NCBI GenBank assembly: GCA_016182605.1
Contig: JACPGE010000075.1
Location: 1 to 49,166, forward strand
Direction: 5' to 3'
Length of the DNA: 49,166 bases
Source of the DNA: Candidatus Hydrogenedentota bacterium
GTDB lineage: Bacteria; Hydrogenedentota; Hydrogenedentia; Hydrogenedentales; JAEUWI01
In this document: in pieces, positions 3 through 32,667 of the stretch
Position numbering within the stretch: position 1 is the stretch's first letter
How the letters are laid out: the number at the start of each line of letters is the position of its first letter
Notes under the pieces: generated by a model
The model's database searches: none
Seen by the model: only the letters and a program-made list of their open reading frames with translations
What the model was told of the DNA's origin: nothing
Program-made: the position numbers and the translations under genes

Positions 3-1952
3 GGTGAAGGTGAGGGCGAGGGCGAGGGTGAGGGCGAAGGCGAGGGTGAGGGTGAGGGCGAAGGCGAGGGTGAGGGTGAGGGCGAAGGCGAGGGTGAGGG
101 CGAAGGCGAGGGTGAAGGCGAGGGTGAGGGTGAAGGCGAGGGCGAGGGCGAAGGCGAAGGCGAGGGTGAAGGCGAAGGCGAGGGTGAAGGCGAGGGCGAA
201 GGTGAAGGCGAGGGTGAAGGCGAGGGCGAAGGTGAAGGCGAGGGTGAAGGTGAAGGCGAGGGTGAAGGCGAAGGCGAGGGTGAAGGCGAGGGTGAAGGCG
301 AAGGCGAATGCAGTGAAATCTGTGTGGATCCGGACGCAGACGAAGATGGCGACGGTCTGTCCTGCTGCGAGGAGTTTGAACTCGGCACCAGCGATCGGAA
401 GTCCGACAGTGATGGCGACGGCATGCCGGATCCCTATGAAGTGGAACATGGATTGGATCCCCGGCTGGACGATTCCGCAGAGGATGCGGACGGCGACAAT
501 CTGACGAATTTTGAGGAGTTCCTCGGCAACTCGGCGCCCGATTTTGCGTCGAGTCCCGCGAATGCGTTCTTCGTGTCGCCTTTTGGGGTAGATGCGCCGG
601 AGCGTGGCAGCCGCGCCAATCCGTGGCAGACGATCGGCTATGCCCTTTCACGGGTTCAGGCCAAGCAAGACGCATCCACGCAGATTGTGCTTCTTGCGGG
701 CGAGTACGCAGAGAACGTGGAGCTGCTTCCGGGAATCCGGCTTGCGGGCGAGCTGGGCGCGGAAGCGCGCATTGTGGGCACCGTGACGGGCGCGCAGGAC
801 AGTGCGCTGGTCAACCTCACCCTGCTGGCGCCACCCGGAGCGGCGTATATTCTGGATATGAACGGCGTGGTGATGCGGGTGGAGCGGGTGGGTTTTCATG
901 ACGGGAATCTGGACAATGACGGCAACCTGCTCCGTGCGGCAACGGGCGCGCTGGTGGACGGGGAGGCGGTGTGGGAGTCGGTGTTTGACACGTGCGTGTT
1001 TGAGAGCCTTTCGGTGGGTATCGACATTGGGAATGCGATCCCGCGCATCCGGCGTTGCGCCTTCTCCAACCTGTCGACGGCGGGCATTATTCTGCGTGCC
1101 ATCGAGGGAGAGACGCCTTCCGATCAGTCCCTGGGCGACGTGACGAGCCCGGAGAGCGGGTGGAACCGCTTCCTCGACGACATCGATGGTCCGGCGGCGA
1201 TCAACGAGCGTGACGAGCAGGTTCGGATGCAGAACAATTACTGGGGCACGAGCGATGAGACGGAAGCGGGCGCACGGATCGACGGCGCGTCCGAATACCT
1301 TCCGATTCTGTTCTCGATCGAGTCCTCGATTCTCGCGCCGTCCCTTTTCTGCACCTGCTGGGAAGCGGGCACACTGAAGCGCGTCACGAGTGGAAGTGTG
1401 ACGCTGACGGTTTCGGCCTTCTTGCCGGTGACGCGAAACGTGGACGGGATCTATGCGTACCCTGCCCTGCCCGATGGGACGTACATGATTTCCGCCACTG
1501 CGGATGGGTTCGCGCAGAGCATGTCCCAGGTCACGGTCAATCCCGGCGAGCTGAAGTCCGTGGTGCTGACGATGATCCCCGATGGTGTCGCGGGCGAGGG
1601 TGAAGGCGAAGGGGAGGAAGCGCCCGATCTGAACGATGTTCGCAGTCTCGCAACCAACTTTGCGCTGATCGATCTGAACGCCGATGGCCGGCTGAGTTTT
1701 GGGGAAGTCTCCGCTGCGCTGGCCCATTTCACGCAATCGCAGTTCCGCTTTCTGGACAGCAACGGCGATAGCTTCCTGACCTTGGCGGAGTTGCAGTCCT
1801 TTATCGATGAGAACACGCTGCCGCCCGGCTGCTGCGCGCAGGCGAAATCCTACGCGCGCTTCAGCCTGGAGCAGGTGCTCGGCGATTTCCTGGTGCTGCT
1901 GCTGGCGGTGGGGGCGTTGTTCGCGGTGTCTTCCGTGCGCCGTGCGCCGTGA
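3..1952 (+). CDS. Gly-Glu-repeat surface protein with beta-helix, EF-hands and C-terminal anchor (5' end outside window)
   Basis: The reading frame is open at the window edge, so the start is missing; 649 codons are visible. Codons 1-102 are 51 uninterrupted Gly-Glu dipeptides that mix ggt/ggc and gaa/gag. Next comes an Asp-rich DxDxDGD region of thrombospondin-type-3 style (about residues 108-165). A Gly- and Val-rich stretch (about 180-430) resembles a right-handed beta-helix of DUF1565 type. A small carboxypeptidase-regulatory-like beta-sandwich follows (about 455-525), then a second short GE run. Two EF-hand-like loops have cores DLNADGRLSF and DSNGDSFLTL. The C-terminus has a Cys pair (GCC), then LGD, about 15 hydrophobic residues and an RR end, the layout of a PEP-CTERM-like sorting signal. 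I infer an exported, calcium-binding, cell-surface protein; its ligand is unknown. The arginine-rich frame over the repeat is a shadow. Confidence 0.85.
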   Translation, partial: GEGEGEGEGEGEGEGEGEGEGEGEGEGEGEGEGEGEGEGEGEGEGEGEGEGEGEGEGEGEGEGEGEGEGEGEGEGEGEGEGEGEGEGEGEGEGEGEGEGEGECSEICVDPDADEDGDGLSCCEEFELGTSDRKSDSDGDGMPDPYEVEHGLDPRLDDSAEDADGDNLTNFEEFLGNSAPDFASSPANAFFVSPFGVDAPERGSRANPWQTIGYALSRVQAKQDASTQIVLLAGEYAENVELLPGIRLAGELGAEARIVGTVTGAQDSALVNLTLLAPPGAAYILDMNGVVMRVERVGFHDGNLDNDGNLLRAATGALVDGEAVWESVFDTCVFESLSVGIDIGNAIPRIRRCAFSNLSTAGIILRAIEGETPSDQSLGDVTSPESGWNRFLDDIDGPAAINERDEQVRMQNNYWGTSDETEAGARIDGASEYLPILFSIESSILAPSLFCTCWEAGTLKRVTSGSVTLTVSAFLPVTRNVDGIYAYPALPDGTYMISATADGFAQSMSQVTVNPGELKSVVLTMIPDGVAGEGEGEGEEAPDLNDVRSLATNFALIDLNADGRLSFGEVSAALAHFTQSQFRFLDSNGDSFLTLAELQSFIDENTLPPGCCAQAKSYARFSLEQVLGDFLVLLLAVGALFAVSSVRRAP

Positions 1953-6134: not shown

Positions 6135-6240
6135 GTAACCCGGATATTTCACCACTTCAAGGCTTTCTGGCAACGAGTTCCTCTTGGAACGTGGTGAAAT
6201 GTGCTCAGCGTGACGGTGGTGCTGGCGTTCGCTGGGCACA
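6135..6240. repeat. Dispersed palindromic repeat, family 1, copy A
   Basis: This is one of three copies (the others at about 11113-11207 and 38774-38882). ATTTCACCAC at 6146-6155 faces a perfect reverse complement at 6191-6200. The 3' half (6203-6236, from GCTCAGCG to CTGGGC) is conserved in all copies and can form a second stem, CAGCG...CGCTG. It lies in the gap between the ThuA-like gene and the tRNA. Confidence 0.8.
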
Positions 6241-6335: not shown

Positions 6336-6412
6336 TGGTAGCGGCGCAGGGATTCGAACCCCGGACACTCGGATTATGATTCCGATGCTCTAACCAACTG
6401 AGCTACGCCGCC
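6336..6412 (-). tRNA. tRNA-Met (anticodon CAT)
   Basis: The minus strand folds into a full 77-nt cloverleaf: acceptor GGCGGCG/CGCCGCT with a G-U first pair, D stem GCTC/GAGC, anticodon stem TCGGA/TCCGA around loop ATCATAA, a five-base variable loop, T loop TTCGAAT and an encoded ACCA end. The anticodon is CAT. The D arm and the CATAA loop resemble elongator tRNA-Met rather than the initiator. A lysidine-modified tRNA-Ile2 also reads CAT and is not excluded. Confidence 0.95.
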
Positions 6413-6677
6413 TCTGTTTGGAGGAAAGAGAATAGCACAGGAAGGGGGCGGCTTTCCACTTGGCTGTCTGGCTGGCGGCGGGCTGGGCCCGGGCGCCGTC
6501 GGTGGGGTATGCGGCAGGGGGGAGTTTGCGGGGTTCCCGCCGAACATGATAGGGTGGGACCGCTTGGCACGTGTGGATTAGGGTAGCGCATGGGAAGCGG
6601 TTTCCGCCGGTATAGGGTCAGCCGCAGGGCGCCGGCAGGGCAGGGTGTATTCGGGCTTCGGGCGGGGCGCGCAGTTC

Positions 6678-9008
6678 ATGGCGGACAGACACAGCGAGAA
6701 GGATACGGTTCGAGAGAGCATCATTGCCGATGTCCTGATGGATGGGGGCGATCGGCCGGATGCGATGTCGGACGCGATGCTGGGCACCCAACTGGGCAAT
6801 TATGAGGTGCTCTTTGTTTTGGGGAAGGGGGCTTATGGGGCGGTGTACAAGGCGCGGGATGTGAAGCTGGGGCGGCCTGTCGCGATCAAGTTTCTGCATG
6901 AGTTTCTTACGGTGGAGCATCAGGAGACGTTTCTGCAGGAGGCGAAGGCGATTGCGGCGCTGGGCAAGCACCGCTCGATCGTGCAGATCTATGAGTGGAG
7001 CGAGTATCAGGGGCGCAATTATTTTGTGCTTGAGTTTGTGGGGTCGAACGCGGCGATGATGCTTCGGGTGCATCCGAAGGGTCTGCCGCTGGAGAAGGCG
7101 CTGCAGATTGGCCTGGAGAGCACGGAGGGGCTTGCCGCGGCGCACAAGAACGGGATTATCCACCGGGATATCAAGCCGGCGAATATTCTGCTTGAAGTGG
7201 AGGGGGGCAACGCGAAGCTTGCGGATTTTGGGGTGGCGCGCTATTTCGATCCGGGTGTCGAGGATTCTGGGGAGACGCCGGGGGGCACGCCGGCCTACAT
7301 GGCTCCGGAGGTCATCCGGGGCTATGCGGGGGACGCCCGGTCGGACATTTTTTCGCTTGGGGCGACGCTCTACGAGTTGCTTTGCGGCCAACTGCCGTTT
7401 GCGGGGCGGAGCGCGAAGGAGGTGATGGCGGAGATTGCGTTGCACCATCTGATTCCGCTGTCCGCGCGCAACGCGGATCTGCCGGATCCCCTCGTCACGA
7501 TCGTGCAGAAGTGCCTTGCGCCCGATCCTGCGCAGCGCTTTGCGACGGCGGACTTGCTGGCGCAGGCGTTGCGCCATTTCCAGCATCCGCTTCAGGTTTC
7601 TCCGCTTGATGCGGGGGAGCATGCGAACCGGGAATCCTGCGAGCGGATCAAGATGAAGGCGTTCAACAAGGCGGAGGATGCGAAGAAGGCCAGCGCGGAC
7701 AAGCTGGCGACGAACATACAGCAGAAGGGGGTGTCTGCGTTTCGCGATGGGGAGGCTTATGAGCGGCTGAATCAGTTTGGGCATGCGGTGATCAAGTATC
7801 AGGCGGCGCTGGAGGTTTTTCAGAAGGCGGAGACGGTGTCGCAGCTCATCATGGCGGAGATCCGCAAGCTCAAGACGGCGCAGCGCGACATGGCGGAGTC
7901 GCGCGCGCTTGCGGAGAAGTCGGACGCGCACCGGCTGGCCGAGCCGATCTATGCGCTGGCGCGGCAGGAGGAGGAGACGGGGCGCAACACGAAGAGTATT
8001 GGCGACGCGTCGGTGCGGTACCGCAACGCGCAGAAGCTCTATGAACGGGCTGCGGTGGAGGCGCGGAAGCATGGGGAGGTGGTGGTGGTGGAGCCCCGGC
8101 GGCGGGCCGCGGCGCTTCGCGGTCAACTGGAGCTGGAGGGGGCGAAAGAGATAGCGCCGGAATTGTTTTCCGCGGGAACCGCGTTGATCGCGCAGGCGGA
8201 GATCGCGCTGCCGGATTACGCGCTGGCGGTCACGCGTTATACGGAGGCGGCGCGTTGTTTTCAGGCGGCGTTTGAGGCGGTGCGGGCGGGCAAGGAATTC
8301 GAGGCGGATTGCAAGCCGCGGGAGCCGATGAGCGCCGCGGGCATCGATTTTGTGTGGATTCCCGCGGGGAGTTTTTCGATGGGCAGCAGCAACGAGCTGC
8401 CGGAAGAGACGCCGGTTCATGAGGTGCGGTTCCGCTATGGTTTCTGGCTGGGGAAGTACCTCGTTACGCAGGAGCAGTGGGAGGCGGTGCTGGGGTCGAA
8501 TCCTTCGGGGTTTCGGGGGAATGGGGCGTTGCCGGTGGAGAATGTTTCCTGGAACGATGCGCAGGTGTTTTTGGCGCGGCTGAGCGCCCTCGGCCAGGGG
8601 CATTTCCGCCTGCCGACCGAGGCCGAGTGGGAATACGCCTGCCGCGCGGGCACGAGCAGTCCGTGGAGCTTTGGATTTGCCATACGCGAGCTGGATGCGC
8701 ATGCCTGGCACGCTGACAATGGGGGCGGGCGTACGCACCCCGTGGGGGAGAAGTTGCCGAACCCCTGGGGGCTTTATGACATGCATGGGAACGTGTGCGA
8801 ATGGTGCGCCGACACCTACTACCCCAATTATGCGGGCAGCCCCACGGACGGTTCGGCGCGGGAGAGCGCGGATATTGCGGAGAAGACGCTGCGTGGCGGG
8901 AGCTGGTGCATCGTGACTCCGGAATGCCGTTCCGGTTACCGCGGCTATGCGGCGCCGGCCGAGATGCGGGGCGATTTTATCGGCTTGCGCGTTGTGCGTG
9001 AGAAGTAG
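6678..9008 (+). CDS. Ser/Thr protein kinase fused to a formylglycine-generating-enzyme-like domain
   Basis: A protein of 776 residues from the ATG at 6678; an in-frame GTG at 6645 would add 11 residues. Residues about 41-300 are a complete Hanks-type kinase: GKGAYGAVY loop, VAIK lysine (71), HRDIKPAN (catalytic Asp 164), DFG (183) and APE (209-211). It is therefore expected to be active. Residues about 300-545 are helical, Ala/Glu/Arg-rich and without membrane segments. Residues about 550-776 are an FGE-sulfatase domain (WIPAGSFSMGS, LPTEAEWEYACRAG, GNVCEWCAD, GGSW, GLRVV). Two cysteines follow GGSW six residues apart, close to but not the same as the copper-binding pair of true FGEs, so sulfatase activation is uncertain. 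Its stop codon abuts the stop of the convergent FapA-like gene with no base between them. Confidence 0.9.
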   Translation: MADRHSEKDTVRESIIADVLMDGGDRPDAMSDAMLGTQLGNYEVLFVLGKGAYGAVYKARDVKLGRPVAIKFLHEFLTVEHQETFLQEAKAIAALGKHRSIVQIYEWSEYQGRNYFVLEFVGSNAAMMLRVHPKGLPLEKALQIGLESTEGLAAAHKNGIIHRDIKPANILLEVEGGNAKLADFGVARYFDPGVEDSGETPGGTPAYMAPEVIRGYAGDARSDIFSLGATLYELLCGQLPFAGRSAKEVMAEIALHHLIPLSARNADLPDPLVTIVQKCLAPDPAQRFATADLLAQALRHFQHPLQVSPLDAGEHANRESCERIKMKAFNKAEDAKKASADKLATNIQQKGVSAFRDGEAYERLNQFGHAVIKYQAALEVFQKAETVSQLIMAEIRKLKTAQRDMAESRALAEKSDAHRLAEPIYALARQEEETGRNTKSIGDASVRYRNAQKLYERAAVEARKHGEVVVVEPRRRAAALRGQLELEGAKEIAPELFSAGTALIAQAEIALPDYALAVTRYTEAARCFQAAFEAVRAGKEFEADCKPREPMSAAGIDFVWIPAGSFSMGSSNELPEETPVHEVRFRYGFWLGKYLVTQEQWEAVLGSNPSGFRGNGALPVENVSWNDAQVFLARLSALGQGHFRLPTEAEWEYACRAGTSSPWSFGFAIRELDAHAWHADNGGGRTHPVGEKLPNPWGLYDMHGNVCEWCADTYYPNYAGSPTDGSARESADIAEKTLRGGSWCIVTPECRSGYRGYAAPAEMRGDFIGLRVVREK

Positions 9009-10988
9009 TTATTTCGCGAAGACCCGCATGCTTGTGTTGGTCCGGTAATAGGTGTGGGGCAGCTCGTCCCCCTCGGTGAGAAAGCAGCTTTCCTCCGGGG
9101 TGAGCGCGCCGCCGGGCGAGTCTACCACGGCAATGCGTATCCCTTTTTCGAAGATTCCGGTCACGCGGGCGGCGCCGGATTCTTCCGGGCGTTCGAGGAC
9201 CTGCACCTGAAAGTCTTTGCCAAGGCGATCGGCGAGTGCGCGGAAATCGTCGAGGCAGGATGCGCGGCGGGCTTCGTATTCTTTGATGTGCTTCAGTTTG
9301 CGCTCGATGATCCCCATGGTCATGGCGATGAAGGGGGAGCGGAGGCTCATGGCGAGGGGGCTGTTTTCGGGCTGCTTGCGGATGGCGGGCAGGATTTTCA
9401 GGAGGACCTTGATCTTGCTGTCGGTGCCGGCGGCGCTTGCGGCGAGCACTTTTTCATAGTTCTCCAGGGACTGGATGTTTTTTTCCTTCTGCTTGAGGAG
9501 TGCCTGGAGGGCGTCCCGTTCTTCGGTCAGTTTGCGGTGTTTGCCGCGGGCCTGGTCCAGCAGCAGCCCGGTCTGGCGGTAGTCCATTGCGGCGGAATCC
9601 ATGCTTTTGCGCAGGGCATCGACTTCTTCGTGTTCGCGGCGGAGGTCTTCATCCACTTGGTCTTCGTCGCTTAGGGTGTTCAGGGCTGGATCCTGTATGT
9701 CGTCTTTCTCGAAGTCGCCCTTGTGGCTCAGCGAGTCTTGGGCTCCTTCCATCGCGAGGGACATGTTGTCCAGTATCCGCGTGACGATGCCGAGGCGCCG
9801 CTGGGTCTGCAAGTAGTCTTCGAGTTTTTTGTGGGTATCGCTGCCGCCGAAGAGATACATGAGCACGGCCTGGGCGCCGTGCTCTACTTCGTTGCGCGTG
9901 GTCGAGGCCAGGAGCTGGTAGTTGTGGGCAATGCGCCGCAGGCGGAAGGCCTTTGAGAGGAGGCGCTTCAGTTCATTGCCGGTGATTTCGCCGTAGTCTT
10001 CACAGCAGAGTTCCCTGCGCAGGCTTACGGTGAGGGCGCTTTGGCCGAGGTGGCGGAAATGGCTTGCGGCGCATTGATCGGCCACTTGAAGGTGGCCGCC
10101 CTTCACCTCGCCGCCGACGGTGAGTACGCGTGTCACGAGCGTGCCGAGCATGGCGCCTTCTTGCACGTGGATCGATTTTCCGGCGAAGATCAATTTTGGG
10201 CCTTGGGCGCTCTGGCAGCGGACGCTGCCCATTTTCGAGATGACTTTCGCGTTGTTGATGATGCTGCGGACGCGGATGTCGCCCTGGAGGACGACGACGA
10301 CGCCTGAAATGTTGGCCATCACGTCGCAGTGGAGCTTGGAGAGCACGCGCCCCATGACGTAGCCGTCGACTGCGCAGTGGTGGAGGCCCTCGACCACCAG
10401 GGTGCAGTTTTCGGGGACGTCGTCCAGCACGCGCACATGGCTGGCCACCTTGATGAGCGGCCCGCGGCTTGGCAGTTCGATGCCGGCGAGCAAGCGGGTT
10501 TCCATGACGGGGGCGGCGCTGATTTCCCGGGAGGTGATGTAAAGCTGGCGCGATTCCAGATCGGTAAAGTCGAGCGGTGTCCGGTCTGTTTCGAGGCGTT
10601 TTCTCAGTATTTCCGCTTCGGGTTCCAGGAGTTCCGCGACTCGCGGCGATCTCTCGCGCACGCCGCCGTCTTGCAGCAGGATATGAACGGCATGGGCGAA
10701 GGCCACTTCGCCGATCGAGATGTTCTGGTGGGAGTCTTGCTTCAGGTCGTCGATCAGGGTCCGCAACATGAGCTGACTGCGCTGGCCGGCGGTGGCGGTT
10801 TCCCCAGTCACATAATTGGCCGTCCATTGGCTGACGGCGCTGTTCAGTTTTTCGACGAGGGGGTGTTTTCCGGGCAGGTCTGCATGGGCATTGGCCCACG
10901 CGCGGCACAGGGCGGCATCCTGCAGTGTGAGATTGGAGAGTTCATCCAGTTTTTTTCGTTCTACGAACGCGATCAGGTTTGCGATCAC
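9009..10988 (-). CDS. FapA/DUF342-like beta-solenoid protein, paralog 1
   Basis: This 659-residue protein shares its whole length with the next minus-strand gene (11226-13214). The start is a GTG, backed by GGAAGGGG nearby and by an identical GTGATCG start context in the paralog. The N-terminal 150 residues are helical. Residues about 180-330 are short beta repeats with Gly turns and conserved Cys/His positions (VVEGLHHCAVDGYVMG, VVLQGDIRVRSI, GPKLIFAGKSI). This resembles the polymerising solenoid of FapA/DUF342 or bactofilins. A CEDYGE motif follows, then a long Glu/Arg/Leu coiled coil (about 400-560) and a small C-terminal beta domain ending in RVTGIFEKG. No signal peptide or membrane segment is visible, so it is probably a cytoplasmic scaffold. 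The family assignment is by pattern and is tentative. Confidence 0.75.
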   Translation of the reverse strand: MIANLIAFVERKKLDELSNLTLQDAALCRAWANAHADLPGKHPLVEKLNSAVSQWTANYVTGETATAGQRSQLMLRTLIDDLKQDSHQNISIGEVAFAHAVHILLQDGGVRERSPRVAELLEPEAEILRKRLETDRTPLDFTDLESRQLYITSREISAAPVMETRLLAGIELPSRGPLIKVASHVRVLDDVPENCTLVVEGLHHCAVDGYVMGRVLSKLHCDVMANISGVVVVLQGDIRVRSIINNAKVISKMGSVRCQSAQGPKLIFAGKSIHVQEGAMLGTLVTRVLTVGGEVKGGHLQVADQCAASHFRHLGQSALTVSLRRELCCEDYGEITGNELKRLLSKAFRLRRIAHNYQLLASTTRNEVEHGAQAVLMYLFGGSDTHKKLEDYLQTQRRLGIVTRILDNMSLAMEGAQDSLSHKGDFEKDDIQDPALNTLSDEDQVDEDLRREHEEVDALRKSMDSAAMDYRQTGLLLDQARGKHRKLTEERDALQALLKQKEKNIQSLENYEKVLAASAAGTDSKIKVLLKILPAIRKQPENSPLAMSLRSPFIAMTMGIIERKLKHIKEYEARRASCLDDFRALADRLGKDFQVQVLERPEESGAARVTGIFEKGIRIAVVDSPGGALTPEESCFLTEGDELPHTYYRTNTSMRVFAK

Positions 10989-11112
10989 GCGTATCCCCTT
11001 CCGCCGGCAGCCTCACAACTCCGGAAATGTGCCTTCGTGCGTTCCGGCGCGCCGGATTTTCCGCAGTAGCTTAACACGTAAGTTCGTGGCGCTCAAAGCC
11101 AGTTGTTGAGGC

Positions 11113-11207
11113 GCATATTTCACCACTTCAAGGCTTTCTTACAACACGCTCCCTTGAGAGGTGGCGAACTATGCTCAGCGTGACGATGGTGCTGGCGTTC
11201 ACTGGGC
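11113..11207. repeat. Dispersed palindromic repeat, family 1, copy B
   Basis: This copy sits exactly between the two FapA-like paralogs. GCATATTTCACCAC (11113-11126) faces GTGGCGAACTATGC, a reverse complement with two changes. Inside it, TCAAGG and CCTTGA extend the stem. The conserved tail CTCAGCGTGACGATGG...CACTGGGC follows. Confidence 0.8.
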
Positions 11208-11225
11208 GTTCCGGGCGATTGGCGC

Positions 11226-13214
11226 TCAGAGGCGGCGCGCGTAGAACTTTGCGCCGGTGTTTGCGCGGATGTAGGTGCGCACCGCGGGCTCGCCGCTGGT
11301 GGTGACGATGCTCCCTTCGGGCGGGGGCGCGCCGTCTTCGGGGGGATCGTCCATGATGATTCGGACCCCTTTTTCGAAGATTCCGGTGACACGGGCGGCT
11401 CCAGACTCGTCCTGTTGAGCCAGCACCCGGACTTGGAAGTCTTTTCCCAGCCGTTCGGAGACGGCGCGGAAATTTTCCAGGCTTTCTGTCCGTCGTTGCG
11501 CGTATTCGGCGATGTGTTTTTGTTTCCGTTCGATGGCGCCCAGCGTCATCGTGGCGAATCCGGTGCGCAGCCGTATTGCCAGGGGGCTGTCGTCGGGCTG
11601 TTTCCGTATTGCGGGGAGAATGCGCTGGAGCACCTGAATTTTGTTTTCGGCGCTTGAGGCCCCCGCGGTCAGGACTTTTTCATATTTTTCCAGCGTCTGA
11701 ATGCCTTTTCCTTTTTGTTGGAGCGTCTGTTGCAGCGCGTCCCGTTCCGCCATGAGGCGCAGTATCTTTTCGCGCGCCTGATCGAGGAGCAGGCGGGTTT
11801 GCCGGTGGTCGAGCGCGGCGGAGTTCAGGCGGCTGCGCAGGGCGTTGACTTCTTCATTCTCTTGTTGGAGATCGGGGTCTACGGGTCCTTCTTGCAAGAA
11901 CTCGCCGAAATCGGGATCTGGGAGGGCCGCTTCCTTTCGTGCCCCGCGCTGGGTCAAGTCGTCTTGTGCGCGCTCCAGCACCAGCGCCATGTTGTCGACG
12001 ATGCGGGTCACGATTTCGAGCCTGCGCTCGGTCTGGAGGTAGTCTTCGAGTTTTTTGTGCGATTCTCCGCCGCCAAAGAGGTACATCAGCACGCCTTGGG
12101 CGGCGTGTTCGACTTCGTTGGTTGCGGCCTCCTCCAGGAGGGCATAGTTCCGGGCGATGCGGCGCAGGCGGTAGGCCTCGGAGAGGAGGCGCCGGAGATC
12201 GACGCCGGTCACTTCGCCGTAGTCTTCGCAGGAGAGGTCGCGGCGCAGCACGATTTCGAGATTGCTCATGCCGAAATGGCGGAAGTGGGCGGCGGTCCCG
12301 TTGTCCGCGATGTGCACGGATCCGCCGCGCAAATCGTTTGCCACGTTGAGGACGCGTGTGATGTAGGCGCCCATGAGGGCTCCGTCGGCGACATCGATCG
12401 ATTTTCCGGCGAATACCAGCTTGGGGCCTTGTGCGCTCCAACAGTAGACGCTTCCGAGTTTTGAAATGGCCTGTGCGTTGTTGACGATACTCCGGGCGCG
12501 GATGTCGCCCTGCAATACCACGATGATTCCGGCGACATTGCCGCGCACTTCACAATGCAATTTCGAGAGGACCCTGCCGAGGACATAGCCATCCACGGCG
12601 CAACAGTGCAGCCCTTCGACGACCACGGTGCAGTTGTCTGGGACGTCGCCGAGGACGCGCACGTTATTTTTCGCGCTGAAAACCGGCCCGCGCCCGGGCA
12701 AATCGATGCCGGCCAGGAGGCGCGTCTCCTTGACGGGCGCCGCCATCAGTTCCACAGCAGTGACGTAGGATTGACGGGACCGCAGGTGTTTGAAATCAAC
12801 ACGGACTCTCCCACTGCCCTGGCGGGCGCGCAAAGCGCTGAGGTGCGGCTCCAACAGCGCCACAACGCGGCTTGGGCTCAGCAGGATGATTCCCGGGAGG
12901 AGGAAATCGTGGACGGCACAGAGAAAGGCCGTGTCTTCGGTGTGCATCCCGGTCAGCCGCCCGTCGCGCAGTTCATCTAGCAAGCCGCGGAGGATCCATT
13001 GATGGCGGCGTCCCGCGGTGGCGGTTTCCGGGGTGGCTGCCTGGGATTGCCATGCGGCGATCGCTTCGCGCAGGCGTGTCACGCGGTTTGTTTCCGCGGG
13101 CGTTCCCATGTGTTCATCGGCCCAGAGCCTGCAGAGTGCGATGTCCTGAAGGGTGAGCCGGGACCAGTCTTCCGGTCCGGTGCGATCCACATAGGCGATC
13201 AGGTGTTCGATCAC
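11226..13214 (-). CDS. FapA/DUF342-like beta-solenoid protein, paralog 2
   Basis: A paralog of the gene at 9009-10988, here 662 residues. Upstream in-frame ATG codons exist, but the GTG at 13214 aligns with the paralog's start (VIEHLIAYV against VIANLIAFV) and has GGAAGGA at the same distance, so I take it as the start. The same order is seen: helical N-terminus, Gly-turn beta repeats (GLHCCAVDGYVLGRVLSKL, VVLQGDIRARSIVNNAQ), CEDYGEVTG, the segment FGGGESHKKLEDYLQT, a coiled coil and the RVTGIFEKG end. The most conserved part is the solenoid plus the segment just after it; the C-terminal tail and the N-terminal helices differ more. Both genes point the same way but are split by repeat copy B. 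Heteromeric assembly of the two products is inference. Confidence 0.75.
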   Translation of the reverse strand: MIEHLIAYVDRTGPEDWSRLTLQDIALCRLWADEHMGTPAETNRVTRLREAIAAWQSQAATPETATAGRRHQWILRGLLDELRDGRLTGMHTEDTAFLCAVHDFLLPGIILLSPSRVVALLEPHLSALRARQGSGRVRVDFKHLRSRQSYVTAVELMAAPVKETRLLAGIDLPGRGPVFSAKNNVRVLGDVPDNCTVVVEGLHCCAVDGYVLGRVLSKLHCEVRGNVAGIIVVLQGDIRARSIVNNAQAISKLGSVYCWSAQGPKLVFAGKSIDVADGALMGAYITRVLNVANDLRGGSVHIADNGTAAHFRHFGMSNLEIVLRRDLSCEDYGEVTGVDLRRLLSEAYRLRRIARNYALLEEAATNEVEHAAQGVLMYLFGGGESHKKLEDYLQTERRLEIVTRIVDNMALVLERAQDDLTQRGARKEAALPDPDFGEFLQEGPVDPDLQQENEEVNALRSRLNSAALDHRQTRLLLDQAREKILRLMAERDALQQTLQQKGKGIQTLEKYEKVLTAGASSAENKIQVLQRILPAIRKQPDDSPLAIRLRTGFATMTLGAIERKQKHIAEYAQRRTESLENFRAVSERLGKDFQVRVLAQQDESGAARVTGIFEKGVRIIMDDPPEDGAPPPEGSIVTTSGEPAVRTYIRANTGAKFYARRL

Positions 13215-29570: not shown

Positions 29571-30185
29571 TCAGGCTGCGGGCGCGGCCGGGGCGGCTTC
29601 GGGTGCGGGGGCGGTTTCCGGCGCCGGCGCAGGGGCTTCCGGGGCCGGTGGCGCTTCGGGCGCAGGGGCGGCTTCCGCCATCACTTCCGGCGCGGGCGCC
29701 GCCTCGGGCGCAGGGGCCGCTTCCGGGGCCGGGGCGGGTTCCGGCGCAGGGGCCGCTTCGGTCATGGCTTCGGGTGCGGGCGCTGCCTCGGGCGCGGGCG
29801 CCGCTTCGGGTGCAGGGGGCGCTTCCGGTGCGGGTGCCGCGGGCTGCATGGCCATGTTCACCGAGGTCATGAAGGCTTCGATGGTGGCGATGCGCTGCTT
29901 AACCGCGGCGGACTGCGCTTCGAGTTCTTCGGCGCGCTTGCGCGCGGCATCGGCATCGGCCTTGAGGGTGTCGATTTCCTTTTTGAGTGCGTCGACGCGG
30001 GCGACGAGTGTTTCCGGGCCGAACTTTGCGAGGTCTTCGAGGACCTTGTCGAGCGAGACTTCCGGTGCGGGCGCGGCTTCGGGCGCCGGGGCCTCTTCTG
30101 CGTGTGCCGGGCAGAGCGCCACGGCGCACGCGAGTGCGGCGGCGATGGCCGATGGCGCGATCCATTTTGTCAACATCTTGCGCAT
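29571..30185 (-). CDS. Secreted coiled-coil protein with Ala-Pro-Glu repeats
   Basis: A 204-residue exported protein. Residues 1-29 are a signal peptide ending in AHA. A short APAPE stretch is followed by a coiled coil (about 43-110) that begins LEDLAKFGPETLVARVDALK. The C-terminal 90 residues are APAPEAAP-type repeats with occasional Met. The coiled coil has the same start pattern as the N-terminus of the downstream cytochrome-WD40 protein. Long Ala/Pro/Glu tails usually act as stiff spacers or cell-wall-spanning linkers. I know no named family. Gaps are 25 bases to the next gene and 58 bases to the previous one, with AGGGAGAG before its start. Confidence 0.8.
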   Translation of the reverse strand: MRKMLTKWIAPSAIAAALACAVALCPAHAEEAPAPEAAPAPEVSLDKVLEDLAKFGPETLVARVDALKKEIDTLKADADAARKRAEELEAQSAAVKQRIATIEAFMTSVNMAMQPAAPAPEAPPAPEAAPAPEAAPAPEAMTEAAPAPEPAPAPEAAPAPEAAPAPEVMAEAAPAPEAPPAPEAPAPAPETAPAPEAAPAAPAA

Positions 30186-30243
30186 GAAACTGCTCTCCCT
30201 GCTGGGGCGGCCGCGCGATCGCGCCTGCCCGGGCTACGGCAAA

Positions 30244-32667
30244 TTAATGGTTAAAGACAAACTCTTTCGAATTGAGGATACTCCAGAAGGTGTCTTCCAG
30301 GGCGAGCCTCCGATCCGGTTGCGAGGCCACGTAGGCTTCCAGGTGTTGCGCCTCTTCCGGCGTGGGCGGGCGGCTCATGGCGGCGAGATACAACTCTTCG
30401 ATCACCTGCGGCGTCGGCGTTTCCGCGGCCAACAAGGTGTTGAGGCGGCCCTCGCCGCTCTTGATGGCGGTGTCCAAGGTATTGCCATTGATGAGATGGA
30501 GCGACTGCGCGAGGGTCGGCTCCGCGCGCCGTTCGCAGGTGCACACCGTATCCCGCGGCGGGCGGCCAAAAACTTCGAGGAAGTAGACGCCGCTCTTGCC
30601 GTCGGCGACCTGGGTGGCGCGCGCGCCCAGCGGGAGATTGGCGAACTTCACCTGGCTGTCGGTGACCTGGCAGATGGCGTCGAGCATTTGTTCCGCGGAG
30701 AGGCGGCGCACCTGCGCGTAGGCAAAATTGCGCGTGTCGCGCACGGTCTCATCGCGCGGCTGGGTGGACATCTGGTAGGCGTAGGAATTGCAAATGTCGC
30801 TCACGAGTTTGCGCAGGTCGTAGTTGTACGAGACCAGGCGCTTGCCGAGTTCGTCGAGCAGTTGGGGATTGCTTGGCGGATTGGTGACGCGGACGTCGTC
30901 CGGCGGATCGATGATGCCCGCGCCGAAGAAATGCTGCCACACCCGGTTGGCGATGTTCTTGGAGAACCACGGATTGTCCGGCGAGGTGAGCCATTCCGCC
31001 ACAGCGGCGCGGCGGTCGCGTCCGTTGAGTTCGGGGCGGGGTCCGCCGAGGAATTTGGGTTGCATGACCTGGCCGTCGCGGATGTTGGTGACTTCGCCGC
31101 TGCCGCGGTTGAAGATGATGTTTTCGCGGGGGTCGCTGGAGGGCTTGCGGCCGACCTGGGCGAAGAAGGCCGCGAAGGAATAGTAGTCGTCCATGGTCCA
31201 GCGTTCGAAGGGATGGTTGTGGCACTGGGCGCATTTGATCTGCACGCCCATGAAGACCTGGGCGACGTTTTCCGCCATGACGAGCGGGTCGCTGTCGACG
31301 ACGAAGAAGTTGGTGGCGGGGTTGGTGAAGTTGCCGCCTTCCGCGGTGAGCAGTTCACGGACGAGCTGGTCCATGGGGGTGTTCGAGGTGATGGAATGGC
31401 GCAGCCAGTCGTTGTAACGCAGCATGCCCTTGCGGTCGAAGCCGATGTTGTCGTCCGCGGTGACACGGAGTACTTCGGCCCATTTCATGGCCCAGAGTTC
31501 GGAGAATTCGGGGCGCTCGAGCAGTTGCGCGATAAGTTTGCTCCGCTTCTCCGGATCGGGATCGGCCAGGAAGGCGCGGGTCTCTTCGACCGTGGGCAGC
31601 TTGCTGAGGATGTCGATGTAGAGGCGGCGGATGAAGACCGGGTCAGAGCAGAGTTCGGCCGGGGGCACGCGCAGCTTTTTCAGCTTGGCGAAGACGAACT
31701 CATCCACGAAATTGTGCGGCGCGGGATCGGGATACTGGTTGGTGGCGTTGGCCGGAACGACGATGACCTTCGACACGACGGCGAAGGTGCCGAAGCGCGC
31801 CATGATATACACTTCGCCGGACTGCGCGGAGGTGGTAAGACCCTGCGCGTCGACCTTGAGGGATTGCTCGTCGCTGGTGCTGAGCACGCTCAGGTCCGTG
31901 ACGTCGCGGGTCGATCCGTCGGAATACGCCGCCGTGACCACAAACTGCTGGGTGGCATTTTCGCCTTCCAGAACGGCTTCGCGAGGAAGGATCTCGATGG
32001 ATGCGAGCGATTTCACATCCGCGGGATCGTCCTTCGCGCCTTCGGCAATCCAGCGGCGGACCGTTTCGTAGAGGTGGGATTTTTTCTGAAGGACGGTGCC
32101 GCCTTCATGATCGACGGCGCCAATCGGCTTGAGGAGCATGAGGCTCTCTTCGGGCAGGGCGATGTTGATGCGGCGCGAGCGGATGTCGCGTGTGAGGCTG
32201 GTGTAGTCATAGCCGGGGTCGAAGCCAAAGAGCGACAGGCGAAAGCCGTTCTTGCCGGAGGCGCTCCCGTGACAGCCGCCAGTGTTGCAACCGGAGCGCA
32301 TGATGACGGGGATCATGTCGTTGCGGAAACTCATGGGGTTGACAACCGCGGCGTTGGAAACCTTGACCGGCACGGTCAACTGCTGATCGCCAAGCGTGAT
32401 GACCGCTTCGGTCTCACCATCGGCCACGGGGCGCAATTGGAGATCGGTCCACGATGCGATGCCTTCCTGTTTGAACACGATCTGGGCCTGGGCGGTGACG
32501 TCGATCGTGACGCCGTCGGCCCGGGTTTGCTGGACGACAAGGCGCTGGCAGGCCTCGGCATTGCCCAACTGGGCTGCCGGCGGATAGACGGCGATAGTCT
32601 GTGCCTGGGCTGCAAATGCACCGGAAACGAGGGCAATTATGCCGCACACAATGCCTGATCTTTTCAT
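30244..32667 (-). CDS. DUF1549/DUF1553 Planctomycete-cytochrome-type protein
   Basis: A secreted protein of 807 residues with a signal peptide (about 1-23). An Ig-like BIG2-type segment comes first. Next is a heme-like site CNTGGCH (C127, C132, H133) in the family-typical GKNGFRLSLFGFDP context. Another Ig-like segment leads to DUF1549 (about 330-540), with IKCAQCHNHPFERW (CxxCH 479-483), and DUF1553 (about 560-800), with NRVWQHFFGAGII and LNSKEFVFNH at the end. These proteins are abundant in Planctomycetes, Verrucomicrobia and Hydrogenedentes. They are almost always next to a DUF1501 protein, as here, and are linked by context to sulfated or complex polysaccharide use. The biochemical role is not proven. 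Confidence 0.95.
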   Translation of the reverse strand: MKRSGIVCGIIALVSGAFAAQAQTIAVYPPAAQLGNAEACQRLVVQQTRADGVTIDVTAQAQIVFKQEGIASWTDLQLRPVADGETEAVITLGDQQLTVPVKVSNAAVVNPMSFRNDMIPVIMRSGCNTGGCHGSASGKNGFRLSLFGFDPGYDYTSLTRDIRSRRINIALPEESLMLLKPIGAVDHEGGTVLQKKSHLYETVRRWIAEGAKDDPADVKSLASIEILPREAVLEGENATQQFVVTAAYSDGSTRDVTDLSVLSTSDEQSLKVDAQGLTTSAQSGEVYIMARFGTFAVVSKVIVVPANATNQYPDPAPHNFVDEFVFAKLKKLRVPPAELCSDPVFIRRLYIDILSKLPTVEETRAFLADPDPEKRSKLIAQLLERPEFSELWAMKWAEVLRVTADDNIGFDRKGMLRYNDWLRHSITSNTPMDQLVRELLTAEGGNFTNPATNFFVVDSDPLVMAENVAQVFMGVQIKCAQCHNHPFERWTMDDYYSFAAFFAQVGRKPSSDPRENIIFNRGSGEVTNIRDGQVMQPKFLGGPRPELNGRDRRAAVAEWLTSPDNPWFSKNIANRVWQHFFGAGIIDPPDDVRVTNPPSNPQLLDELGKRLVSYNYDLRKLVSDICNSYAYQMSTQPRDETVRDTRNFAYAQVRRLSAEQMLDAICQVTDSQVKFANLPLGARATQVADGKSGVYFLEVFGRPPRDTVCTCERRAEPTLAQSLHLINGNTLDTAIKSGEGRLNTLLAAETPTPQVIEELYLAAMSRPPTPEEAQHLEAYVASQPDRRLALEDTFWSILNSKEFVFNH

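What the first reader, a model, noticed from the sequence alone, without database searches (positions are those of the whole stretch)
6678..13214. Kinase-FGE fusion facing two tandem FapA/DUF342-like scaffold proteins
An active-looking Ser/Thr kinase carrying an FGE-type domain ends with its stop codon abutting the stop of the first scaffold gene. Two full-length paralogs with solenoid and coiled-coil parts follow. This arrangement could form a signalling plus self-assembling scaffold unit. I am not aware of a described system with this set.
Basis: inference. Interest (0 to 1): 0.55.

Follow-up and report, generated by a model that had tools for sequence, protein, structure and literature searches.

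The report
Kinase gene facing FapA-like scaffold genes
In uncultured bacteria of the phylum Hydrogenedentota, an apparently active protein kinase with a lectin-like tail sits tail-to-tail with genes for large rod-shaped proteins distantly related to a flagellar assembly protein; the two are inherited together in several species, which suggests, without proof, that the kinase regulates the rods.

Summary
An active-looking Ser/Thr kinase with an FGE-fold domain (6678-9008 +) meets scaffold A (9009-10988 -) stop to stop; a 57% identical paralog B (11226-13214 -) follows. The model of A (pLDDT 85) shows a helical N-domain, a beta-solenoid and a coiled coil. No Pfam family passes its cut-off on A or B; the solenoid is weakly related to FapA/DUF342 and the FapA N-domain is absent, so they are FapA-like, not FapA. 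Of 68 held genomes of the phylum, 8 have the full kinase and 7 this scaffold clade, all 7 among those 8. They are adjacent tail-to-tail in 4 (one family, two genera) and unlinked in 3; one genome keeps the kinase alone. The A/B doublet is seen only here. The wider family lacks this kinase in 24 of 32 genomes. It nearly always co-occurs with flagellar FlhA (31 of 32), but one mostly non-flagellated family drives most of that signal. Best reading: the kinase phosphorylates a FapA-like scaffold and controls its assembly or position; phosphorylation, polymers and a flagellar role are inferred. Kinase-FGE fusions are already known (Chlamydia Pkn1).

The parts
6678..9008 (+). Ser/Thr kinase - helical repeat - FGE-fold protein, 776 aa
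6801..7565 (+). protein kinase domain (PF00069); catalytic motifs intact and invariant in 8 of 8 orthologs
7629..8312 (+). helical middle region, about three long helical hairpins; strong matches only in the 8 kinase genomes of 68 (a ninth, G038, at E 3.9e-4)
8346..8999 (+). FGE-sulfatase fold (PF03781) domain; Cys744 and Cys750 invariant in 8 of 8 orthologs
9006..9011 (.). abutting convergent stop codons; in relatives the spacing is 0 nt (G005), a 4-nt overlap (G004) or 6 nt (G006)
9009..10988 (-). scaffold A, 659 aa, FapA-like
10548..10988 (-). scaffold A N-terminal helical module (residues 1-147); a related module occurs in ~250-aa proteins of the phylum
10020..10508 (-). scaffold A beta-solenoid (residues 161-323), pLDDT mostly 92-96
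9210..9977 (-). scaffold A long helices, predicted coiled coil (residues 338-593)
9981..9983 (-). Thr336, the only column that is Ser/Thr in 8 of 8 clade-A rows and in 0 of 24 other rows, at the solenoid/coil hinge (candidate phosphosite, prediction only)
11226..13214 (-). scaffold B, 662 aa, tandem paralog of A (ORF open to 13346)

Best explanation
A Hanks-type kinase, with a helical-repeat linker and an FGE-fold (C-type-lectin-like) tail as a likely sensing or regulatory domain, acts on its neighbour, a FapA-related scaffold. The scaffold has a helical N-module for partner binding, a beta-solenoid rod and a coiled coil for oligomerisation. Phosphorylation, perhaps at the solenoid/coil hinge, would switch assembly or placement of the scaffold, possibly in cell-pole or flagellum organisation. 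Shown: domain architecture, intact catalytic motifs, predicted scaffold fold, weak FapA relation, linkage and co-occurrence. Inferred: phosphorylation, polymerisation, cytosolic location, polar or flagellar role.
For: Co-occurrence: kinase in 8 of 68 genomes, clade-A scaffold in 7, both in 7, neither in 60. Convergent adjacency with spacing from a 4-nt overlap to 6 nt in G000, G004, G005 and G006. Window ORFs of 100 aa or more that start below 26 kb have no relative in four related kinase loci (each about 14-20 kb) other than kinase, scaffold, ORFs overlapping these two genes, and one 28% identical Gfo/Idh-type match, so the pair stays together while flanks differ. Clade A is monophyletic, 100/100. 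Kinase catalytic residues invariant. Scaffold model pLDDT 85, pTM 0.81; beta-helix matches HMW1 Z 12.6 (rmsd 4.4, 208 aligned) and GlmU Z 10.9-11.7 (rmsd 10.6-11.2, 166-178 aligned). FapA link: 10 of 32 members match at E <= 0.1, best 2.3e-5; hhalign E 4.7e-4 over 189 columns; divergent paralogs in G002, G014 and G028 pass the FapA cut-off, and one in G035 with its neighbouring matches added. Main scaffold family: 31 of 32 genomes have FlhA.
Against: G001 has the kinase with no scaffold at that locus (best tblastn E 0.099), though it has two other, non-clade-A family members. Unlinked in G013, G021 and G026. Convergent, so not co-transcribed. All linked cases lie in one family and may reflect a single ancestral event; within families f1, f8 and f10 co-occurrence gives only p 0.024 over 11 genomes. 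The FlhA association is p 0.058 without family f11 and p 0.60 within f5. None of the scaffold neighbours that were Pfam-scanned is a flagellar gene. The FapA comparison has only 32.6% probability, a single-FapA comparison failed, the G035 paralog scored 25.7 bits, under the cut-off of 31, when scanned whole, and Foldseek gave no hit at E <= 0.001. Scaffold B has a hydrophobic peak (19-residue mean 1.77 near residue 95), so a cytosolic location is not assured.
Confidence: 0.4

Rival explanations
1. The scaffolds are FapA-like structural proteins doing a housekeeping or flagellum-linked job without this kinase; the neighbouring kinase is an inherited neighbour with other substrates.
For: 24 of 32 genomes with the main family lack this kinase. 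In 8 of 10 non-clade-A loci read at 18-19 kb, the scaffold gene sits with relatives of an IF-2B-family gene and of RecJ. G001 keeps the kinase alone. Kinase and scaffold trees agree where supported, as simple vertical inheritance would give.
Against: Clade A is a distinct monophyletic group found only in kinase-bearing genomes (7 of 7), and in one family the pair stays linked while flanks differ.
Confidence: 0.35
2. The FGE-fold domain is catalytic (formylglycine-generating or other metal-dependent chemistry) and the kinase-FGE protein is mainly a modifying enzyme; the scaffold is a substrate or docking platform.
For: Cys744 and Cys750 are invariant in 8 of 8 orthologs. The best NCBIfam hit of the domain is PvdO (134 bits), below its cut-off of 500.
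Against: None of the NCBIfam equivalogs listed for this domain passes its cut-off (best 25 rows). The Cys spacing is C-x5-C, while true FGE has C-x4-C (recalled, no call).
Confidence: 0.1
3. A conflict or immunity module: the FGE/C-type-lectin fold senses an invader and the kinase is effector or switch, as proposed for FGS-containing systems of multicellular bacteria.
For: FGS/CLec domains in such systems (PMC7159879, PMC8195603, PMC10907252; passages only). The kinase hits PADLOC kinase models (mad6 E 3.1e-75, PD-T4-6).
Against: The PADLOC hits lie mostly over the generic kinase domain (25 of 34 shown). No diversity-generating template was found for the last 249 nt of the gene: the best off-target match in the genome is 36 nt at 86%. 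No defence gene among the neighbours Pfam-scanned. Scaffold A has one weak PADLOC hit over its coiled coil (LmuB E 3.7e-4) and B none.
Confidence: 0.05

Closest known systems
FapA / DUF342 (PF03961 with PF20250)
   Same: beta-solenoid followed by helices; weak sequence relation of the solenoid
   Different: A and B do not pass the FapA cut-off, have a different helical N-domain instead of FapA_N, and are longer (659-662 against 494 aa); the genome also has a true FapA with both domains
Chlamydia trachomatis Pkn1 and other kinase-FGE fusions
   Same: N-terminal Ser/Thr kinase and C-terminal PF03781 domain (PMC3581485, passage); kinase-to-FGE matches also in Planctomycetota, Cyanobacteria and others
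   Different: the middle helical repeat was found strongly only in 8 of 68 Hydrogenedentota genomes (not sought outside the phylum on its own); no FapA-like neighbour is mentioned in the passage read
Vibrio FapA with EIIA-Glc
   Same: a FapA protein whose partner interaction depends on phosphorylation (PMC6877527, passages)
   Different: there it is the phosphorylation of the PTS partner EIIA-Glc that matters, not a Hanks kinase acting on FapA
MinC C-terminal domain
   Same: beta-helix fold (recalled); 1 of 32 family members hits PF03775 at E 1.3e-6
   Different: no MinC_C match listed for A or B up to E 1

Membership tests
FapA (DUF342) | PF03961 solenoid match over the curated cut-off | tested here: not met
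   A: 11.6 bits against a cut-off of 31; B: no FapA match listed. Best of 32 family members E 2.3e-5
FapA (DUF342) | FapA_N N-terminal region (PF20250) | tested here: not met
   present in the genome's true FapA; not listed for A or B, nor among the 25 of 31 families shown for the 32 members
FapA (DUF342) | distant homology of the solenoid | tested here: inconclusive
   leans to yes: hhalign E 4.7e-4 (one comparison, probability 32.6%); divergent paralogs in G002, G014, G028 (and G035 with neighbouring matches) over the FapA cut-off, but G035 below it when scanned whole
Hanks-type Ser/Thr kinase | PF00069 with intact VAIK, HRD, DFG and APE | tested here: met
Formylglycine-generating enzyme (true FGE) | catalytic Cys pair with C-x4-C spacing (spacing recalled) | tested here: not met
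   invariant pair Cys744/Cys750, spacing C-x5-C
Diversity-generating retroelement target | template repeat matching the variable C-terminal end | tested here: not met
   last 249 nt of the gene searched in the own genome (97.86% complete): best off-target match 36 nt at 86%; reverse transcriptase genes were not searched
Self-assembling cytoskeletal scaffold | polymer formation | not testable with these tools
   needs microscopy or light scattering

The most novel reading that the evidence does not exclude
A Hydrogenedentota cytoskeleton-like organiser: a FapA-derived solenoid/coiled-coil scaffold with its own N-terminal helical module (shared with a second small protein family whose hits all fall in FlhA-positive genomes), brought under control of a dedicated lectin-fold-bearing Ser/Thr kinase that sets the position or number of flagella or cell-pole structures.
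Probability: 0.2. Interest if true: 0.65.

Novelty: new variant of a known kind. Interest (0 to 1): 0.42.

Why it matters
If true, it would tie Hanks-kinase signalling to FapA-like solenoid scaffolds; in the few passages seen here FapA appears only in Vibrio polar-flagellum work. Independently, the data define an uncurated FapA-like family in 32 of 68 Hydrogenedentota genomes, and show that in this phylum every genome with a strong FapA match also has FlhA (35 of 35), although 13 of 48 FlhA genomes lack such a match.

Tried and rejected
FapA membership: rejected (cut-off and FapA_N not met). A single true FapA against the family profile gave nothing; only profile against profile did. Diversity-generating retroelement: no template found. 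Defence system: mostly generic kinase hits and one weak coiled-coil hit. Mobile element: no plasmid or phage relative of scaffold A at E 1e-5. Intrinsic terminator at the junction: none listed between 8950 and 9400; the nearest + strand ones are at 9435 and 9463, inside scaffold A; the region has 6 terminator-like sites against a mean of 10.0 in shuffles. Solved structures by sequence: coiled-coil or designed-bundle hits only, best E 0.017. Foldseek: no hit at E <= 0.001. Solenoid families not listed are not excluded, and that call warns that Z under about 13 can reflect a common arrangement in helical or repeat proteins. The kinase model is poor in its known domains because the alignment has 8 rows (mean pLDDT 61), so it was used only for the helical middle region. 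Range outside the phylum: the scaffold scan of genome contigs found nothing but is insensitive, so phylum specificity is not claimed for the scaffold. Neighbours of the small N-module proteins that were scanned (20 proteins) included no flagellar gene. Literature: ten searches, of which I saw listings, plus passages of five papers; I saw no description of a kinase paired with FapA-like proteins, but several searches were noisy and most subscription papers are missing. Presence/absence sets for one search were typed by hand. In them the two genomes with only N-module hits (G017, G060) and the three with only the divergent paralog type (G003, G028, G035) were dropped from 'main family', and FapA means a match over 100 bits.

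Full report
What is there. The kinase ORF runs 6645-9008 on the + strand, with an ATG at 6678. It has a Pkinase domain (E 1.7e-51) and a C-terminal FGE-sulfatase fold (E 3.8e-49). The Lys of VAIK and the HRD, DFG and APE residues are invariant in 8 of 8 orthologs, as are Cys744 and Cys750 of the FGE-fold domain. Between the domains is a helical region of about three long hairpins (the confident part of an otherwise poor model). The kinase has no strong hydrophobic stretch (best 19-residue mean 1.21); scaffold A peaks at 1.44 and B at 1.77 near residue 95. The kinase stop TAG (9006-9008) abuts the reverse-strand stop of scaffold A (9009-10988). Scaffold B ends at 11226 and starts at 13214 or upstream. 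A and B are 57% identical; the N-terminal module is the most diverged part between them (42%) and the solenoid the least (64%).

What the scaffolds are. An AlphaFold model of A on 32 aligned relatives has mean pLDDT 85 and pTM 0.81: helical residues 1-147, beta-solenoid 161-323 (ten-residue means mostly 92-96), long helices 338-593, and a small beta tail. Structural comparison finds beta-helices: HMW1 secretion domain Z 12.6 (rmsd 4.4, 208 aligned) and GlmU Z 10.9-11.7 (rmsd 10.6-11.2, 166-178 aligned), plus helical bundles; Foldseek itself had nothing at E <= 0.001. Pfam gives no family over its cut-off for A or B. Of 32 family members, 10 match FapA at E <= 0.1, best 2.3e-5. Profile against profile, the family meets 15 true FapA proteins of the phylum at E 4.7e-4 over 189 columns, at only 32.6% probability; a single true FapA gave nothing. 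A more divergent paralog type passes the FapA cut-off in G002, G014 and G028, and in G035 with its neighbouring matches added (scanned whole, the G035 protein scored 25.7 bits against 31), and the same four are found by the scaffold A query at E 1e-10 to 3e-17. The FapA_N domain, present in the genome's own true FapA, is not found. So the scaffolds are probable distant relatives of FapA with another N-terminal module, not FapA.

Where they occur. Contigs of five relatives match named Candidatus Hydrogenedentota records by length and coordinates, so the phylum is inferred to be Hydrogenedentota. All 68 held genomes of the order, which are all held genomes of the phylum, were searched. The main scaffold family is in 32 of 68. 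Of 10 non-clade-A family loci read at 18-19 kb, 8 carry relatives of an IF-2B-family gene and of RecJ and 5 of cytidylate kinase; the Pfam names come from one locus, L079. The window's scaffolds belong to a monophyletic clade A (100/100) with one row each from G004, G005, G006, G013, G021 and G026; A and B form a duplication found only in the window's genome (100/100; tree of 46 rows). Full-length kinase orthologs, defined by the helical middle region, are in 8 of 68; a ninth weak hit is G038 at E 3.9e-4. Clade A occurs in 7 genomes, all among those 8; the eighth, G001, has the kinase only. The 2x2 table is 7/1/0/60, p 8e-9 ignoring kinship, and p 0.024 within the three families concerned, 11 genomes.

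Linkage. Kinase and clade-A scaffold are adjacent and tail-to-tail in G000, G004, G005 and G006 (two genera of one family): no gap, 4-nt overlap, no gap and 6-nt gap respectively. In G004 and G006 the next gene is a 3-hydroxyacyl-CoA dehydrogenase fusion; in G001 that gene follows the kinase directly and no scaffold remnant is seen. In G013, G021 and G026 the two genes lie on different contigs, each about 3 kb or more from the contig ends. Of window ORFs of 100 aa or more starting below 26 kb, only the kinase and scaffolds, ORFs overlapping them, and one 28% identical Gfo/Idh-type match have relatives in the four related loci. Kinase and scaffold trees agree where supported; the deep forks of the kinase tree are weak. 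A genome-wide background of gene-order conservation could not be measured.

Flagellar hint. FlhA is in 48 of 68 genomes. True FapA (over 100 bits) is in 35, all FlhA-positive, including the only two FlhA-positive members of family f11; 13 FlhA genomes lack it. The main scaffold family is in 32, of which 31 are FlhA-positive; the exception, G062, is 72% complete. For the scaffold the association is p 3e-6 overall but p 0.058 without family f11 and p 0.60 within f5, so it is a hint only. The N-terminal module of the scaffolds is also found in nine ~250-aa proteins with their own coiled coil. A query with one of these hits 27 of 68 genomes, all FlhA-positive. Three of those (G027, G034, G063) match only the coiled-coil half and two (G007, G028) are the divergent scaffold paralogs, which leaves 22 genomes; the small p-value for family f11 printed rests on G027 and G034 and is not used. 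No flagellar gene was found among 20 neighbours scanned.

Mechanism. I favour kinase control of scaffold assembly or placement. The hinge residue Thr336 is Ser/Thr in 8 of 8 clade-A rows and in 0 of 24 other rows; it is the only such column, but 19 columns of other residues are clade-specific by the script's rule too, so it is a lead and not evidence. Regulation of FapA through a phosphorylation-dependent partner is known in Vibrio (PMC6877527, passages).

Known and new. Kinase plus FGE fusion is known: Chlamydia Pkn1 (PMC3581485, passage). In the genome scan the best 80 of 313 related loci were kept; besides 5 Hydrogenedentota orthologs, 16 of the other 75 matched from kinase to FGE, in Planctomycetota, Cyanobacteria and others; I did not check that each is one reading frame. 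What I have not seen described, in ten literature searches of open-access papers, is the pairing with a FapA-like scaffold. I rate it a new variant of a known kind.

Noticed in passing
window 6141-6237 and 11112-11207: A roughly 100-nt interspersed repeat in direct orientation brackets kinase plus scaffold A. Its 20-nt core has 62 hits (up to 2 mismatches, these two included) in the genome and 0 for the reversed control. It might have taken part in rearranging the locus.
   Followed up: partly
L246-L254 (for example L247:4168-4932): Uncurated ~250-aa coiled-coil proteins carry the scaffold's N-terminal helical module (9 read). A query with one hits 27 of 68 genomes, all with FlhA; 3 of these match only the coiled-coil half and 2 are divergent scaffold paralogs.
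   Followed up: partly
L075, L077, L079-L084: Scaffold gene in a conserved cluster with relatives of an IF-2B-family gene and RecJ (8 of 8 of these loci), and of cytidylate kinase (5 of 8).
   Followed up: partly
L001:838-2322 and FapA loci: True FapA (over 100 bits) occurs in 35 of 68 genomes, all 35 with FlhA; in the mostly non-flagellated family f11 only the two FlhA-positive genomes have it.
   Followed up: partly
window 6336-6412: tRNA-Met (CAT) on the - strand upstream of the kinase.
   Followed up: no
window 3-1952 and 29764-32658: ORFs that begin with low-complexity repeats (Gly-Glu run at the window start; Gly/Ala/Ser-rich start of a 964-aa ORF).
   Followed up: no
L229:647-8173: In G035 a divergent scaffold paralog lies in a block with a DUF1499 protein, an inositol monophosphatase, an FtsA-like actin-fold protein and a 722-aa protein without Pfam match; relatives of the same four flank it in G028.
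   Followed up: no
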